Assembly: GCF_021531595.1 (NCBI RefSeq)
Contig: NZ_JADYUD010000016.1
Location: forward strand, 1 to 46,390
Length of the DNA: 46,390 bases
Source: Fusobacterium perfoetens
GTDB taxonomy: Bacteria; Fusobacteriota; Fusobacteriia; Fusobacteriales; Fusobacteriaceae
Direction of reading: 5' to 3'
Each line of letters opens with the position of its first letter. Within the stretch, counting starts at the first letter, position 1. Positions 4,087-12,944 of the stretch are shown one piece after another. The notes beneath the pieces were generated by a model that saw only the letters and a list, made by a program, of their open reading frames with translations, was not told the DNA's origin and ran no database searches. A program made the translations under genes and the position numbers.

Positions 4087-4232
4087 AGTTGGATAAGCAA
4101 ATTAATATAGATCCAAACTAAAGACAGTGGGTGGCGAAAGCCATAAATCCTACCGAGGTTGGACAGAAGTTCAGTAACCTCAGAAGAGTTTATGACCTCC
4201 GTTCCACTTCAAAAATGGTGCGGAGGTTAATT
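4087..4232 (+). promoter_or_regulatory. L10 leader (rplJL autoregulatory RNA) with candidate attenuator
   Basis: GTGGG (4127-4131)/CCTAC (4149-4153) encloses GGC-GAAA-GCC (4133-4142) across an asymmetric loop, the kink-turn-like arm expected for L10(L12)4 binding. Downstream, GAGGTT (4155-4160) can pair with AACCTC (4176-4181), which can instead pair with GAGGTT at 4223-4228. The latter is also used by ACCTCCG (4195-4201)/CGGAGGT (4221-4227), a hairpin followed by a short T-rich stretch. L10 leaders are known in enterobacteria and Bacillus, where they act by translational repression and attenuation respectively. Confidence 0.75.
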
Positions 4233-4261
4233 TTAAATAAAAGAGGAGGTGAAATCGTAAA

Positions 4262-4821: not shown

Positions 4822-5187
4822 ATGGCATTCAATAAAGAACAATTTATCGCTGACTTAGAAGCTATGTCAGTTTTAGAATTAAGAGAATTAGTATCAGCTT
4901 TAGAAGAGCACTTCGGAGTAACAGCAGCAGCTCCAGTTGCAGTAGCAGCAGGACCAGTTGCAGCTGAAGTTGAAGAAAAAACTGAATTTGATGTTGTATT
5001 AACAAACGCTGGAGACAAAAAAATCGGAGTTATTAAAGAAATCAGAGGAATAACTGGATTAGGATTAAAAGAAGCTAAAGACTTAGCTGACAACGGTGGA
5101 GTTATTAAAGAAGGAGCTTCTAAAGAAGAAGCTGCTGAAATTAAAGCTAAATTAGAAGCTGCTGGAGCTACAGTAGAAGTTAAATAG
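4822..5187 (+). CDS. rplL: 50S ribosomal protein L7/L12
   Basis: A 121-residue stalk protein: an N-terminal dimerisation domain (residues 1-32), an Ala-rich hinge ([14 protein letters not shown], about residues 35-48) and the C-terminal factor-binding domain ([27 protein letters not shown]...). Several dimers bind L10. The strong AGGAGG 10 nt upstream and the attenuator downstream fit the need for more L12 than RNA polymerase. Confidence 0.98.
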
Positions 5188-5230
5188 TTTTATTTCTAAT
5201 ACAATAAATTGTACTGAATAAACAAAGCAA

Positions 5231-5259
5231 TAGGCACTCAAAAATGAGTGCCTATTTTA
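5231..5259 (+). terminator. Attenuator between rplL and rpoB
   Basis: TAGGCACTCA (5231-5240) and TGAGTGCCTA (5245-5254) form a perfect 10-bp stem with an AAAA loop. Only TTTTAAT follows, a weak T run compatible with partial termination so that rpoBC are made at lower level than rplJL. No convincing new promoter lies between it and rpoB. Confidence 0.75.
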
Positions 5260-5304
5260 ATCATGTTATAGAGTATTGAGTTTTTATATCTAATTTTTTA
5301 CTTA

Positions 5305-5374
5305 GTTAATACTTAATCTGTTGAAAATAATATAATTATAACTGTATGTTGTTTTCAATAGGTTAAGTATTGAC
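5305..5374 (+). other. 30-bp stem-loop upstream of rpoB, likely RNase III substrate
   Basis: Positions 5305-5334 pair without interruption with 5345-5374: 25 Watson-Crick and 5 G-U pairs, 10-nt loop at 5335-5344. It lies 26 nt before the rpoB start and downstream of the attenuator. Length and position match the RNase III processing hairpin of the E. coli rplL-rpoB gap. The pairing is read directly; processing is inferred. Confidence 0.7.
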
Positions 5375-5400
5375 AATAAAAATTGAAGGGGTGTGAGTAA

Positions 5401-8400
5401 ATGGGGAAACTCGTTGAAAGATTAAATTTTGGAAAAATAAAAGAAAGAGGAGAAATGCCTCATTTCCTTGAATTTCAATTGAATTCTTACGAAGATTTTA
5501 TTCAAGCAAACAAGAATCCATTGTCAAGAGAAGATAAAGGATTAGAATCTGCATTTAGAGAAATATTTCCAATAGAGTCTTCTAATGGAGACATTAAACT
5601 GGAATATATAGCTTATGAACTTCATGAAGCTGAAAAACCTTTAAATGATGAGTTAGAATGCAAGAAAAGAGGAAAAACATACTCTGCTTCATTAAAAGTG
5701 AGATTGAGATTAACAAATAAAAAAAGCGGAAATGAAATTCAGGAAAGCTTAGTATATTTTGGAGAACTTCCTTTAATGACTCCAAGAGGAACATTTATTA
5801 TAAATGGTGCGGAAAGAGTTGTTGTATCACAGTTACATAGATCACCAGGAGTATCTTTTGATAAAGAAGTAAATCTTCAAATAGGTAAAGACCTTTTTGT
5901 TGGGAAAATTATTCCATATAAAGGAACTTGGCTTGAATTTGAAACAGATAAAAATGACTTTTTAAATGTTAAAATCGACAGAAAGAAAAAAGTATTAGCT
6001 ACAGTATTCTTAAAAGCTATTGATTTCTTTGATACAAACGAAGATATCATGAATGAGTTTTTAGAAATAAAAGAATTAGATTTATCAACATTCTATGAAA
6101 AATATGCAAACAAACAAGATTTACTTGATGAATTAAAAGTTAAAATGGAAGGAAGCTTCCTTAAAGAAGATATAATTGACGAAGAAAATGGAGAATTTAT
6201 AGGAGAGGCTTCAACAGTAATAAGTGAAGAACTTATCAGCAAAATTATAGATAAGAGAATAATGAGCATTACTTACTGGGAAGTTAAACCTGAAGAAAAA
6301 ATTCTGGCAAATACTATTTTAAATGATTCAACTGAAACTAAAGAAGAAGCAGTTACAGAGGTATTTAAGAAATTAAGACCAGGAGACTTAGTAACAATAG
6401 ATTCAGCTAAATCTCTTATAAAACAAATGTTCTTCAATCCTCAAAGATACGATCTTGAGCCTGTTGGAAGATATAAATTAAATAAGAGATTAGGACTTGA
6501 TATTCCTGAAACACAAATTCTTTTAACAAAAGATGATATTGTAAGAACTATGGAAATTATTATGGACCTTTATAATGGAGAGGGACATACAGATGATATA
6601 GATAACTTATGTAACAGAAGAATAAGAGGAGTAGGAGAACTTCTTTTAATGCAAATCAGAACAGGTCTTGCAAAAATGGGTAAAATGGTAAAAGAAAAGA
6701 TGACAATTCAAGATTCTGAAACATTATCATCTCAGTCTTTATTAAATACAAGACCATTAAATGCTCTTATCCTTGATTTCTTTGGTTCTGGACAGTTATC
6801 ACAGTTCATGGACCAATCAAACCCACTAGCTGAACTTACTCATAAAAGAAGAATATCAGCACTTGGACCTGGAGGACTTTCAAGAGAAAGAGCGGGATTC
6901 GAAGTAAGAGACGTACATGACTCTCACTATGGAAGAGTTTGTCCTATAGAAACTCCAGAAGGACCAAACATAGGTCTTATTGGATCACTTGCTACTTATG
7001 CAAAAGTAAATAAATATGGATTTATAGAAACTCCATATATTAAAATAGAAAATGGAAAAGTAAACTTTGACAGAATAGATTACTTAGCTTCTGATGAAGA
7101 AGATGGATTATTTATAGCTCAGGCCGATACTAAAATAGGTGAAAATGGAGAGCTTTTAGGAGAGGTTACATGTAGATTTGGACATGAAATCGTTCAAATT
7201 CCTGGAGAAAAAGTTGACTATTTAGATGTATCTCCTAAACAGGTTGTATCTGTATCAGCAGGATTAATTCCATTCTTAGAGCACGATGACGCCAACCGTG
7301 CACTTATGGGATCTAACATGCAGAGACAGGCTGTACCATTACTTAGAACAGAAGCTCCTTATGTAGGAACAGGTCTTGAAAGAAAAGTTGCAGTTGACTC
7401 TGGGGCAGTTGTAATTTCAAGTGTTGATGGAGTAGTAACTTATGTAGATGCAAGCAAGATAAAAATAGAAGAAGATGGAACTGGAAAAGAGTATACATAC
7501 AGACTTCTTAACCATGAGCGTTCAAACCAAGCAATGTGTTTACATCAAAAACCAATCGCAGATGTTGGTGAAAGAGTTAAAAAAGGTGATGTAATAGCTG
7601 ATGGACCTGCTACAAAAGGTGGAGATCTTGCACTTGGAAGAAATATTCTTATGGCATTCATGCCTTGGGAAGGATATAACTACGAAGACGCAATCTTAAT
7701 ATCTGACAGATTAAGAAAAGATGATGTATTTACATCTATACATATAGAAGAATATGAAATAGAAGCAAGAAATACTAAACTTGGAGACGAAGAAATAACA
7801 AGAGAAATACCAAATGTATCAGAAGAAGCTGTAAGAAATCTTGATGCAAATGGTATAATAGTTGTAGGAGCAGAAGTTGAAGCAGGAGATATTCTTGTTG
7901 GTAAAACTGCACCTAAAGGAGAAACAGAACCTCCTGCAGAAGAAAAATTATTAAGAGCAATATTCGGAGAAAAAGCAAGAGATGTAAGAGATACATCACT
8001 TAGAATGCCTCACGGATCAAAAGGAACAGTAGTTGAAGTTCTTGAACTTTCAAGAGAAAATGGAGACGATTTAAAAGCTGGTGTAAATAAAGCAATAAGA
8101 GTATTTGTGGCTGAAAAAAGAAAGATAACAGTTGGAGATAAAATGTCTGGTCGTCATGGAAACAAAGGGGTTGTTTCTAGAGTTTTACCAGCTGAAGATA
8201 TGCCATTCTTAGCAGATGGAACACATCTAGATGTTGTTCTTAACCCACTTGGAGTGCCTTCTCGTATGAATATCGGACAGGTACTTGAAGTTCACTTAGG
8301 ACTTGCTCTTCAAAAGATCCCTAACAAAGATGAAAGATATATAGCAACACCTGTATTTGACGGGGCATCAGAAGATGAAGTTAAAGATTTCTTAGAGAAG

Positions 8401-8913
8401 TCAGGATATCCAAGAAGTGGTAAAGTTACATTATATGATGGAAGAACAGGAGAAAAATTTGATAACCCTGTTACTGTAGGAATCATGTATATGTTAAAAC
8501 TTCACCACCTTGTAGAAGATAAAATGCACGCAAGAGCAATAGGACCTTATTCATTAGTTACTCAACAACCTCTAGGAGGAAAAGCTCAATTTGGAGGACA
8601 AAGACTTGGAGAAATGGAAGTTTGGGCTCTTGAAGCATACGGAGCATCAAATATTCTTCAAGAAATGCTTACTGTTAAATCAGATGATATTAATGGAAGA
8701 ACTAAAACTTATGAAGCAATAGTAAAAGGAGAAGATATGCCTGAAGCAGATCTTCCAGAATCTTTCAAAGTTTTATTAAAAGAATTCCAAGCAATCGCAC
8801 TAGATGTTGAGTTATTTGACAAAGAAGGAAACTTAATCAATGTTGATGAAGATATAAATAAAGAGGAAGCTATAACAGAATTCTCTTTAGCATCATTAAC
8901 TGAAAAAGAATAA
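5401..8913 (+). CDS. rpoB: DNA-directed RNA polymerase subunit beta
   Basis: The 1170-residue beta subunit is shorter than the 1342 of E. coli, as in lineages lacking the large beta insertions. Conserved blocks include [17 protein letters not shown] in the N-terminal part, the rifampicin-pocket cluster beginning at G462 and the [17 protein letters not shown] block. Residues equivalent to E. coli Q513, D516, H526 and S531 are kept (Q468, D471, H481, S486); the position equivalent to S522 is Ala (A477). The C-terminal [11 protein letters not shown] clamp segment is intact. AAGGGGTG precedes ATG 5401. rpoC follows after 80 nt as a separate gene, not fused. Confidence 0.99.
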
Positions 8914-8993: not shown

Positions 8994-11900
8994 ATGGGAA
9001 TAAAAAGTTTTGAAAAAATAAGAATAAAACTTGCTTCTCCTGAAAAAATTTACGAATGGTCACATGGAGAAGTTACAAAACCAGAAACAATTAACTACAG
9101 AACATTAAATCCTGAAATGGATGGATTATTCTGTGAAAGAATATTCGGACCAAGCAAGGACTGGGAATGTGCGTGTGGAAAATATAAAAGAATGAGATAT
9201 AAAGGTTTAGTTTGTGAAAAATGTGGTGTTGAAGTAACTAAATCTAAAGTAAGAAGAGAAAGAATGGGGCATATAGCTTTAGCTGCCCCTGTATCTCATA
9301 TATGGTATTCTAAAGGAACACCTAATAAGATGGCATTAGTTCTTGGAATTTCTCCAAAAGAACTTGAATCAATCTTATATTTTGCAAGATATATTGTTAT
9401 AGAAAGTAGTGAAGAAACTCTTCCTGTAGGTAAAATATTAAACGAAAAAGAATATAAACTTTTCAAACAAATGTATGGAAATGCATTTGATGCAAAAATG
9501 GGAGCAGAAGCTATCTTAAAACTTTTAGAAGATTTAAATCTTCCAGTATTAAGAGAAGAATTAGAAAAAGAACTTGATGATGTAAATTCTAGCCAAAAAA
9601 GAAAGAAAGTAGCTAAGAGATTAAAAATAGTAAGAGACTTTATGGAATCTAATAACCAACCAAGCTGGATGATTCTTAAAAATGTTCCTGTTATTCCTGC
9701 TGATTTAAGACCAATGGTTCAGCTTGATGGAGGAAGATTTGCTACTTCTGACTTAAATGATCTTTACAGAAGAGTAATTAACAGAAATAATAGACTTAAA
9801 AAATTATTAGAAATAAAAGCTCCTGAAATTGTTGTTAAAAACGAAAAAAGAATGCTTCAGGAAGCTGTTGATGCCTTAATAGACAATGGAAGAAGAGGAA
9901 AACCTGTTGTTGCTCAAAATAACAGAGAATTAAAATCTCTTTCTGATATGTTAAAAGGAAAACAAGGAAGATTCAGACAAAACCTTCTAGGTAAAAGGGT
10001 TGACTATTCAGCCAGATCAGTTATCGTTGTTGGACCTTCATTAAAAATGAACCAATGCGGAATTCCTAAGAAAATGGCTCTTGAACTTTACAAACCTTTC
10101 ATTATGAGAGAACTTGTAAAAAGAGAACTTGCTACAAATATAAAAACAGCTAAAAAATTAGTTGAAGAAGCAGATGACAAAGTATGGGATGTAATTGAAG
10201 ATGTAATCAAAGATCACCCTGTATTACTTAACAGAGCTCCGACTCTTCACAGATTATCAATTCAAGCTTTTGAACCAGTGTTAATTGAAGGAAAAGCTAT
10301 AAGACTTCATCCGTTAGTATGTTCTGCATTTAATGCCGACTTTGACGGAGACCAAATGGCTGTTCACTTAGTATTATCACCAGAAGCTATAATGGAAGCA
10401 AAACTTTTAATGCTTGCTCCAAATAATATTATTTCTCCAGCTAATGGTCAGCCAATAGCTATTCCAGGACAAGACATGGTTATGGGATGTTTCTATATGA
10501 CTAAAGACAGACCTGGATGCAAAGGAGAAGGAAAATTATTCTCTAATAAAGAACAAGTTTTAACTGCTTATCAAAATGGTGTAGTAGACACTCACAGTAT
10601 TATAAAAGTAAGAATAAAAGATGAAACAGTAACTACTACTCCTGGAAGAATTTTATTTGCAGAACTTCTTCCAGAAGAAATCAGAGATTATCATATGACT
10701 TATGGTAAAGGACCTCTTAAGAAATTAATAGGTGAATTATATGAAAGATATGGTTTCGTAAAAGCAGCTGAAATAATAGATAAACTTAAAAACTTCGGAT
10801 ACCACTATTCTACATTTGCTGGAGTATCAGTTGGTATAGAAGACCTTGAAATTCCTGCAAGTAAAAAAGAAATTCTTGAAAATGCAGATAAAGAAGTTGC
10901 AAGAATTGAACAAGAATATAAAGCAGGACATATTATTAACGAAGAAAGATACAGAAGAACAATTGCTGTATGGTCTCAGGCTACAGCAGCTGTTACAGAT
11001 GCAATGATGAATGGACTTGATGAATTCAACCCAGTTTACATGATGGCGAACTCTGGAGCCAGAGGATCTATTCAACAGATGAGACAGCTTGCAGCCATGA
11101 GGGGAAATATGGCCGATACAAGAGGTAGAATCATTGAAGTACCTATTAAAGCTAACTTCCGTGAAGGTCTAACAGTATTAGAGTTCTTTATGTCATCACA
11201 CGGAGCTAGAAAAGGACTAGCAGATACAGCTCTAAGAACTGCCGATTCAGGATATTTAACAAGAAGACTTGTTGATATATCTCATGAAGTTATAGTTAAT
11301 GCAGAAGACTGTGGAACTCATGAAGGAATTGAAGTTGCAGAACTTGTATCTGATGGAAATGTAATTGAAACATTAGCAGAAAGAATTAATGGAAGAGTTT
11401 TAGCAGAAGATTTAATAGTAGATGGAGAAGTAATTGCTCCTAGAAATACTATGATAGGTAAAGCTCTTATTAAGAGAATAGAAGAATTAGGAATCAAAAA
11501 AGTAAAAATTAGAACACCTCTTACATGTGCTCTTGAAAAAGGAGTATGTAAGAAATGTTATGGTATGGATCTTTCAAATCATAAAGAAGTACTTCTTGGA
11601 GAAGCAGTTGGAGTTATTGCAGCTCAATCAATTGGAGAACCAGGTACTCAGCTTACAATGAGAACATTCCATACTGGAGGAGTTGCCATGGCAACAGCTT
11701 CTGCAACAACTAAAAAAGCAGAAGTAAGTGGTAAACTTAAATTTAAAGATGTAAAAATTCTTGTAAATGAAGAAACTAATGATGAAATAGTAGTAAGTCA
11801 GTCAGCTAAAATTTCTATTGGAAACTATGACCATGAAATTCCTTCAGGAGCTATTTTAAGAGTAAAAGAAGGAGATACAGTACAAGCAGGAGATGTTCTT

Positions 11901-12944
11901 GCAGATATTGACCCATATCATGTGCCAATTATATGTGACCAAGATGGAACAGTTGCATTTAAAGAAATTTACATAAAAGCAAACTATGATGAAAAATATG
12001 ATGTTACAGAATATCTTGCAGTAAAACCTGTTGAATCAGGAGATGCTAACCCAAGACTTATCGTTTACGATAAAGATCATAATCCAAAAGCAAGCTATCC
12101 AATTCCATTTGGAGCATACTTAATGGTTAAAGAGGGAGATAAAGTAACTAAAGGACAAATTCTTGCAAAACTTATAAAAGAAGGAGAAGGAACAAAAGAC
12201 ATCACAGGAGGTCTTCCTAGAATTCAGGAATTATTTGAAGCAAGAAATCCTAAAGGAAAAGCACTTCTTACAGAAATAGACGGTAAAGTTGAAATAACTG
12301 CTAAGAAGAGAAAAGGTATGAGAGTAATCATTATCAGAAATGAGAAAGATCCTGATTTATTCAGAGAATATCTTGTATCTGTAGGAGATCACTTAGTGGT
12401 AACAGATGGAATGCTTATTAAATCTGGAGATAAAATCACAGAAGGAGCAATTTCTCCATTTGATGTGTTAAATATCAAAGGACTTGTAGCAGCTGAGCAG
12501 TTCATCCTTGAATCAGTACAACAAGTATATAGAGATCAAGGAGTTACTGTTAACGATAAACATATTGAGATTATCGTTAAACAGATGTTCAAGAAAGTAA
12601 GAATTACAAATTCTGGTTCATCACTATTACTTGAAGATGAAGTTGTTGAAAAGAGATTAGTTGATCTTGAAAATGAAGAATTAAAAGCAAAAGGTAAAAA
12701 ACTTGTTGAATACGAACCAGTAATCCAAGGTATTACAAAAGCTGCTGTTAATACAGAAAGCTTCATATCTGCTGCTTCATTCCAAGAAACAACAAAAGTT
12801 CTTTCAAATGCAGCTATAGAAGGTAAAGAAGACTACTTAGAAGGTCTGAAAGAAAATGTAATCATCGGTAAGAAAATTCCTGCAGGAACAGGTTATGTTG
12901 ATTACAGAAATGTAGTTCCTACAGAAGTAAAAGAGGAACAGTAA
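8994..12944 (+). CDS. rpoC: DNA-directed RNA polymerase subunit beta'
   Basis: This 1316-residue subunit carries the N-terminal zinc ribbon (C59, C61, C74, C77), the catalytic Mg loop [10 protein letters not shown] (D449, D451, D453), the bridge-helix/trigger-loop region ([36 protein letters not shown]) and the second zinc site (CGTHEG with [11 protein letters not shown]). The E. coli-type SI3 insertion appears absent. AAGGAGG lies 11 nt upstream of the start. It is the last gene before the operon terminator at 12953. Confidence 0.99.

What the first reader, a model, noticed from the sequence alone, without database searches (positions are those of the whole stretch)
5231..5374. Attenuator plus uninterrupted 30-bp hairpin between rplL and rpoB
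A perfect 10-bp terminator stem with a weak T run is followed by a 30-bp helix (5305-5334 with 5345-5374; 25 Watson-Crick, 5 G-U pairs). E. coli has the same order, a partial terminator and then an RNase III site, to separate ribosomal-protein from polymerase synthesis. Seeing both parts here suggests either deep conservation or convergence. The hairpin replaces a promoter, as none is convincing in the gap.
Basis: partly seen in the sequence, partly recalled or inferred. Interest (0 to 1): 0.6.

Follow-up and report, generated by a model that had tools for sequence, protein, structure and literature searches.

The report
Conserved long RNA hairpin before rpoB
Between the genes for ribosomal protein L12 and RNA polymerase, this Fusobacterium and its relatives keep a terminator-like stem followed by a long RNA hairpin; its shape is conserved even where its sequence is not, so it is probably a cutting site that lets the cell make ribosome and polymerase proteins in different amounts, as in E. 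coli.

Summary
A 30-bp uninterrupted helix (5305-5334/5345-5374; 25 Watson-Crick, 5 G-U) follows a 12-bp terminator-like stem (5229-5256) between rplL and rpoB. It is the longest uninterrupted hairpin in 446 kb of this genome. Across Fusobacteriales the terminator-like stem is in essentially every gap. A long hairpin just before rpoB occurs in all 14 Fusobacteriaceae genera (weaker or loop-expanded in a few) and two neighbouring families, but not in Leptotrichiaceae. Several genera carry hairpins with no detectable sequence similarity to this one. In the alignable group, sense-strand G-U pairs outnumber A-C combinations 81 to 8, so selection acts on the sense RNA duplex, not on a DNA palindrome or antisense RNA. 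RNase III is encoded in 95 of 96 genomes. Best explanation: an E. coli-like junction, partial terminator then RNase III site. Termination and cleavage are inferred, not shown. Absence in Leptotrichiaceae and sequence turnover lean towards independent origin rather than deep conservation. No Rfam family covers the hairpin, and I found no paper describing it in Fusobacteria. A well-supported new member of a known kind.

The parts
4100..4240 (+). L10 leader (autoregulation of rplJ-rplL), upstream context
   Evidence: Rfam RF00557, 55.1 bits (gathering 44)
4822..5187 (+). rplL, ribosomal protein L7/L12
   Evidence: ORF of 121 aa; used to locate homologous gaps
5229..5258 (+). Terminator-like hairpin: 12-bp stem, AAAA loop, TTTT then AA; proposed partial terminator
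   Evidence: stem GGCACTC/GAGTGCC or GACACTC/GAGTGTC in essentially all Fusobacteriales gaps; GGCACTC stem pattern single in the genome
5305..5334 (+). 5' arm of the long hairpin
   Evidence: covariance model finds only this place in G000
5335..5344 (+). Apical loop (10 nt); most variable part, with an insertion of about 150 nt in one relative (L038)
5345..5374 (+). 3' arm of the long hairpin; proposed RNase III-cut duplex with the 5' arm
5386..5396 (+). Shine-Dalgarno region AAGGGGTGTGA of rpoB, 11 nt after the hairpin
   Evidence: sequence; RAGGRGNGTGA-type in most hairpin-bearing genera
5401..8913 (+). rpoB, RNA polymerase beta subunit
   Evidence: ORF of 1170 aa; matches in 93 of 96 order genomes
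8994..12944 (+). rpoC, RNA polymerase beta' subunit
   Evidence: ORF of 1316 aa

Best explanation
The gap works as a two-step junction in the rplJ-rplL-rpoB-rpoC transcript. A partial intrinsic terminator releases part of the transcripts after rplL (inferred). Transcripts that read through form a long, AT-rich, sequence-tolerant duplex ending 26 nt before the rpoB start (the structure and its selection are shown by comparison). RNase III cuts that duplex (inferred), separating the ribosomal-protein message from the polymerase message so that the two are made and decay independently (inferred).
For: Fold z = -8.2 and longest hairpin in 446 kb. A hairpin of about 20-41 bp lies just before rpoB in all 14 Fusobacteriaceae genera plus the f2 and f3 genomes; Leptotrichiaceae segments mostly fold no better than shuffles. 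Hairpins of g7, g9, g10, g14, g15 and g16 mostly show no sequence similarity to those of g1 or g2, so length, position and pairing are kept, not sequence. In L038 the arms still pair around a loop insertion of about 150 nt, better than all 500 shuffles. On a 34-sequence alignment 91% of cells pair, against 36-52% when the partner is slid, covariation score 0.193 against 0.153 shuffled, 0/500. Sense-strand G-U cells 81 against A-C cells 8; as distinct pair-type-genus combinations 24 against 6. No T-run follows the hairpin, so it is not a terminator. RNase III in 95/96 genomes. The covariance model matches one place per matching genome, always in front of rpoB. Same layout in E. coli, where the region is a reported RNase III substrate (PMC2777011) with an attenuator (PMC4670729); the E. 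coli gap also folds well (z = -7.2) with a terminator-like stem early in the gap.
Against: No transcript ends, no rnc mutant, no cleavage data. RNase III is present in Leptotrichiaceae too, where the hairpin is missing, so its presence does not discriminate. In g4, g6, g11 and g12 the hairpin is interrupted or has an expanded loop, and for L044 and L046 the arm pairing is only modestly better than shuffles (z about -1.7). Double-sided compensatory changes inside the alignable group are few (5 pairs, no more than in shuffles).
Confidence: 0.7

Rival explanations
1. The hairpin is a stability barrier rather than a cleavage site: it protects the 5' end of a polymerase message (or the 3' end of the ribosomal-protein message) from exonucleases and keeps the rpoB ribosome site single-stranded.
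For: Fixed position just upstream of the Shine-Dalgarno region; structure kept irrespective of sequence.
Against: A protective stem would be expected to be short and GC-rich like the neighbouring terminator; here length (about 20 bp or more) is kept while only 4 of 30 pairs are G-C in the window, which fits a nuclease reading duplex length better (inference).
Confidence: 0.15
2. The hairpin is a protein-binding or regulatory leader for rpoBC, for example an autoregulatory site acting on rpoB translation or on read-through.
For: Located in the rpoB leader; sequence partly conserved inside part of the family; a GCCT loop motif in several genera; an unusual Shine-Dalgarno type co-occurs with the hairpin.
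Against: Sequence-unrelated hairpins in other genera do not fit a sequence-specific binder; the loop motif is missing in the window's own genus; the Shine-Dalgarno region is not part of the hairpin.
Confidence: 0.08
3. The gap holds an rpoB promoter and the palindrome is a DNA operator or incidental.
For: TATAAT occurs after the terminator in some relatives (L004, L023, L024, L030); a 9/12 sigma-70-like match lies in the window's hairpin.
Against: The -10-like box is not conserved in position or presence; promoter-like matches are barely above shuffles (8 against 3.4 +/- 2.4 in 1 kb); the 81 to 8 bias of G-U over A-C is not expected of a DNA palindrome.
Confidence: 0.07

Closest known systems
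E. coli rplL-rpoB attenuator and RNase III processing site
   Same: Same gene order, a terminator-like stem early in the gap followed by extensive structure before rpoB; the E. coli region is reported as an RNase III substrate and an attenuator (PMC2777011, PMC4670729; gap refolded).
   Different: Gap of 319 nt in E. coli against 213 here. The E. coli structure is large and branched in my fold; here it is one uninterrupted 30-bp AT-rich hairpin. No sequence resemblance seen by eye (not tested with an alignment), and Leptotrichiaceae, much closer relatives of the window's genus than E. coli, lack the hairpin.
Intra-operonic terminators of Fusobacterium nucleatum targeted by the sRNA FoxJ (PMC11005410)
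   Same: Shows that Fusobacterium has intrinsic terminators inside operons and that one downstream mRNA likely arises by processing.
   Different: rpoB and rplL are not mentioned in the main text of that paper; the targeted terminators carry guanine stretches, not seen in the stem here.
L10 leader (RF00557)
   Same: Cis-acting RNA in the same operon, present at 4100-4240.
   Different: Acts on rplJ-rplL; unrelated structure and position.

Membership tests
E. coli-type rplL-rpoB attenuator plus RNase III junction | Located between rplL and rpoB in an rplJL-rpoBC gene order | tested here: met
   ORFs; the same gap located in 87 Fusobacteriales loci
E. coli-type rplL-rpoB attenuator plus RNase III junction | Intrinsic-terminator-like stem with T-run just after rplL | tested here: met
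   5229-5258, conserved across the order; T-run weak in the window, stronger in most other genera; the plus-strand scan did not flag it
E. coli-type rplL-rpoB attenuator plus RNase III junction | Partial (incomplete) termination in vivo | not testable with these tools
   needs term-seq or RNA-seq coverage
E. coli-type rplL-rpoB attenuator plus RNase III junction | Long duplex upstream of rpoB under selection as RNA | tested here: met
E. coli-type rplL-rpoB attenuator plus RNase III junction | Cleavage of that duplex by RNase III | not testable with these tools
   only presence of the enzyme gene tested (95/96 genomes)
E. coli-type rplL-rpoB attenuator plus RNase III junction | Common descent with the E. 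coli element | tested here: inconclusive
   absent in Leptotrichiaceae; sequence-unrelated even between Fusobacteriaceae genera; rare near rpoB in the loci of other phyla; broader taxon sampling not possible
Known Rfam family | Score above a family's gathering cut-off | tested here: not met
   no hit in 5180-5420 near any cut-off

The most novel reading that the evidence does not exclude
The hairpin is a fast-evolving, shape-only RNA element that arose in the Fusobacteriaceae lineage independently of E. coli and replaces its sequence repeatedly while keeping a duplex of about 20 bp or more at a fixed distance from rpoB. It would be a case of convergent evolution of ribosome/polymerase uncoupling by RNase III, or by another duplex-reading factor.
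Probability: 0.45. Interest if true: 0.55.

Novelty: new member of a known kind. Interest (0 to 1): 0.42.

Why it matters
Ribosomal-protein genes and the polymerase genes share an operon in many bacteria, yet the cell needs the products in different amounts. Finding the same two-part junction in a distant phylum, with the duplex kept while its sequence turns over, suggests a general solution possibly reached more than once, and gives a directly testable RNase III substrate in a genetically tractable genus.

Tried and rejected
Repeat element or mobile hairpin: the region matches only itself in the genome apart from a 26-nt chance match in an aroK-like gene; the covariance model hits one place per matching genome. 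DNA palindrome or antisense RNA: rejected by the G-U over A-C bias. Second terminator: no T-run follows the hairpin on either strand. Known Rfam family: none (the best sub-threshold hits on the hairpin are eukaryotic miRNA models, i.e. generic hairpins). Phage relation: no match. Conserved promoter: -10-like boxes patchy. In most loci of other phyla rplL was not found within the fetched flank, so only the 170 nt upstream of rpoB were folded. An alignment of genus g14 added little, its arms being nearly invariant.

Full report
OBSERVATION. The sequence at 5229-5374 is as described. The first stem is 12 bp rather than 10 (5229-5240/5245-5256, loop AAAA), followed by TTTT then AA. The second is an uninterrupted 30-bp helix, 5305-5334/5345-5374, with 25 Watson-Crick and 5 G-U pairs, only 4 of them G-C. 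The gap RNA folds with z = -8.2 against dinucleotide shuffles. In the window plus 400 kb of the same genome, both strands, no longer uninterrupted hairpin exists; the next are 25 and 22 bp. Upstream of 284 other ORFs, 4 windows have a hairpin of at least 20 bp ending 13-40 nt before the ATG.

CONTEXT. The window carries the usual secE-nusG-rplK-rplA-rplJ-rplL-rpoB-rpoC order (gene names read from the translations, not from a database search) with an L10 leader before rplJ (RF00557). The families I call Fusobacteriaceae (f1) and Leptotrichiaceae (f4) are named from members matched to titled records in the same way: Cetobacterium sp. 2A and Fusobacterium gastrosuis in f1, Streptobacillus notomytis and Oceanivirga miroungae in f4.

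COMPARISON. rpoB was found in 93 of 96 Fusobacteriales genomes and the rplL-rpoB gap was located in 87 loci, the window included (sequences, with some output cut). The terminator-like stem is present in essentially all, GGCACTC/GAGTGCC in f1 and GACACTC/GAGTGTC in most of f4, a G-C to A-U exchange on both sides. For one to four representatives of each of 26 genera I folded the segment between terminator and rpoB. In f1, f2 and f3 a hairpin of roughly 20-41 bp, mostly ending 13-30 nt before the start codon, is found, with z commonly -2 to -6. Exceptions in strength are g6 (17-20 bp, z near 0), g11 (loop insertions of about 150 and 50 nt) and one g12 genome (L046, expanded loop). The arms of four such cases were tested directly as a duplex: L038 z = -4.0 and L089 z = -4.3 (0 of 500 shuffles), but L044 and L046 only z = -1.7 (32 and 26 of 500). 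In Leptotrichiaceae the segment mostly folds no better than shuffles (z about -0.8 to +1.4, two genomes at -1.7 and -2.6). The hairpins of g7, g9, g10, g14, g15 and g16 mostly show no alignment signal with those of g1 and g2, although each is a hairpin at the same place.

SELECTION ON THE SENSE RNA. On an alignment of 34 sequences from seven genera the 26-pair helix is formed in 91% of cells against 36-52% when the 3' partner is slid; covariation score 0.193 against 0.153 for shuffles, 0/500 reaching it. The number of pairs with double changes (5) is not above shuffles. The more telling count is this: non-Watson-Crick cells that are G-U on the plus strand number 81, and those that are A-C (G-U on the minus strand) 8; as distinct pair-type-genus combinations 24 against 6. 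A DNA palindrome or an antisense RNA would not give this bias. Caveat: the pairing register was defined from the window's own fold, which includes 5 G-U pairs; leaving out its genus g1 still gives 18 against 4 (counted by hand from the list).

UNIQUENESS. A covariance model of the hairpin matches one place per matching genome in the seven genera it was built from (39 of 96 genomes), always in front of rpoB; the second hit per genome is the opposite strand of the same place. The GGCACTC/GAGTGCC stem is single in the genome. No Rfam family applies.

MECHANISM. Shown: a conserved terminator-like stem, then a duplex selected as sense RNA at a fixed place before rpoB. Inferred: the stem terminates part of the transcripts; RNase III cuts the duplex. 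Support for RNase III: what is retained is duplex length and continuity, not sequence or GC content; the enzyme is encoded in 95 of 96 genomes; the same layout in E. coli is a reported RNase III substrate and attenuator (PMC2777011; PMC4670729). Against: no experimental data, and RNase III is equally present where the hairpin is absent.

DEEP CONSERVATION OR CONVERGENCE. The hairpin is missing in Leptotrichiaceae and in one more divergent record titled Fusobacteria bacterium (L131, z = 0.0), changes sequence completely between related genera, and is rare close to rpoB in 61 loci of Synergistota, Bacillota and others (only L126 and L135 have at least 20 bp within about 45 nt of rpoB with z below -2). 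That favours independent origin, but a hairpin that turns over this fast could also be old and repeatedly lost; the sampling does not settle it. Several Synergistota show a 15-31-bp hairpin 66-101 nt upstream of rpoB, possibly a terminator-like stem; not followed up.

PROMOTER QUESTION. Promoter-like matches are few and not conserved in position; TATAAT occurs in some genera. The published F. nucleatum start-site and end-site maps (PMC11005410) would decide, but the main text does not mention rpoB or rplL and the supplementary tables could not be read here.

LITERATURE. Searches found no description of this element in Fusobacteria. A survey of ribosomal leaders reports an S4 leader in Fusobacteriales, not this one (PMC7247131). 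Absence from the held library is not proof of absence from the literature.

VERDICT. A real, selected RNA structure; most likely a fusobacterial counterpart of the E. coli rplL-rpoB junction. New member of a known kind, with good comparative evidence and no experimental evidence yet.

Noticed in passing
window 5233-5252 and the same place in relatives: The terminator stem sequence (GGCACTC/GAGTGCC, or GACACTC/GAGTGTC in most Leptotrichiaceae) is far more conserved than an ordinary terminator seems to need, with an A-tract before it complementary to the T-run; in some genomes the flanks pair further across the T-run.
   Followed up: partly
apical loop, e.g. L010, L014, L039, L043, L051: A GCCT motif sits in or near the apical loop of the long hairpin in genera g2, g4, g5, g6, g14 and part of g3, but not in the window's genus.
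   Followed up: no
window 5386-5396; one search list: Hairpin-bearing genera mostly have an unusual rpoB Shine-Dalgarno region RAGGRGNGTGA; Leptotrichiaceae without the hairpin mostly have a canonical GGGAGGAA or AAGGAGGA.
   Followed up: partly
L038 (G046) and L044 (G047): Insertions of about 150 nt and 50 nt in the loop of the long hairpin.
   Followed up: partly
L062, L065, L066, L068-L073 (genus g21, Leptotrichiaceae): rplL-rpoB gaps of 476-748 nt with several conserved blocks and hairpins (e.g. TTTTTTGTATTAATTTTTA, AAGAATATGTTCTT) of unknown function.
   Followed up: no
G000:C8:25689-26015 and similar places in many f1 genomes: A second, short RNase III-like ORF (about 130 aa), possibly Mini-III.
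   Followed up: no
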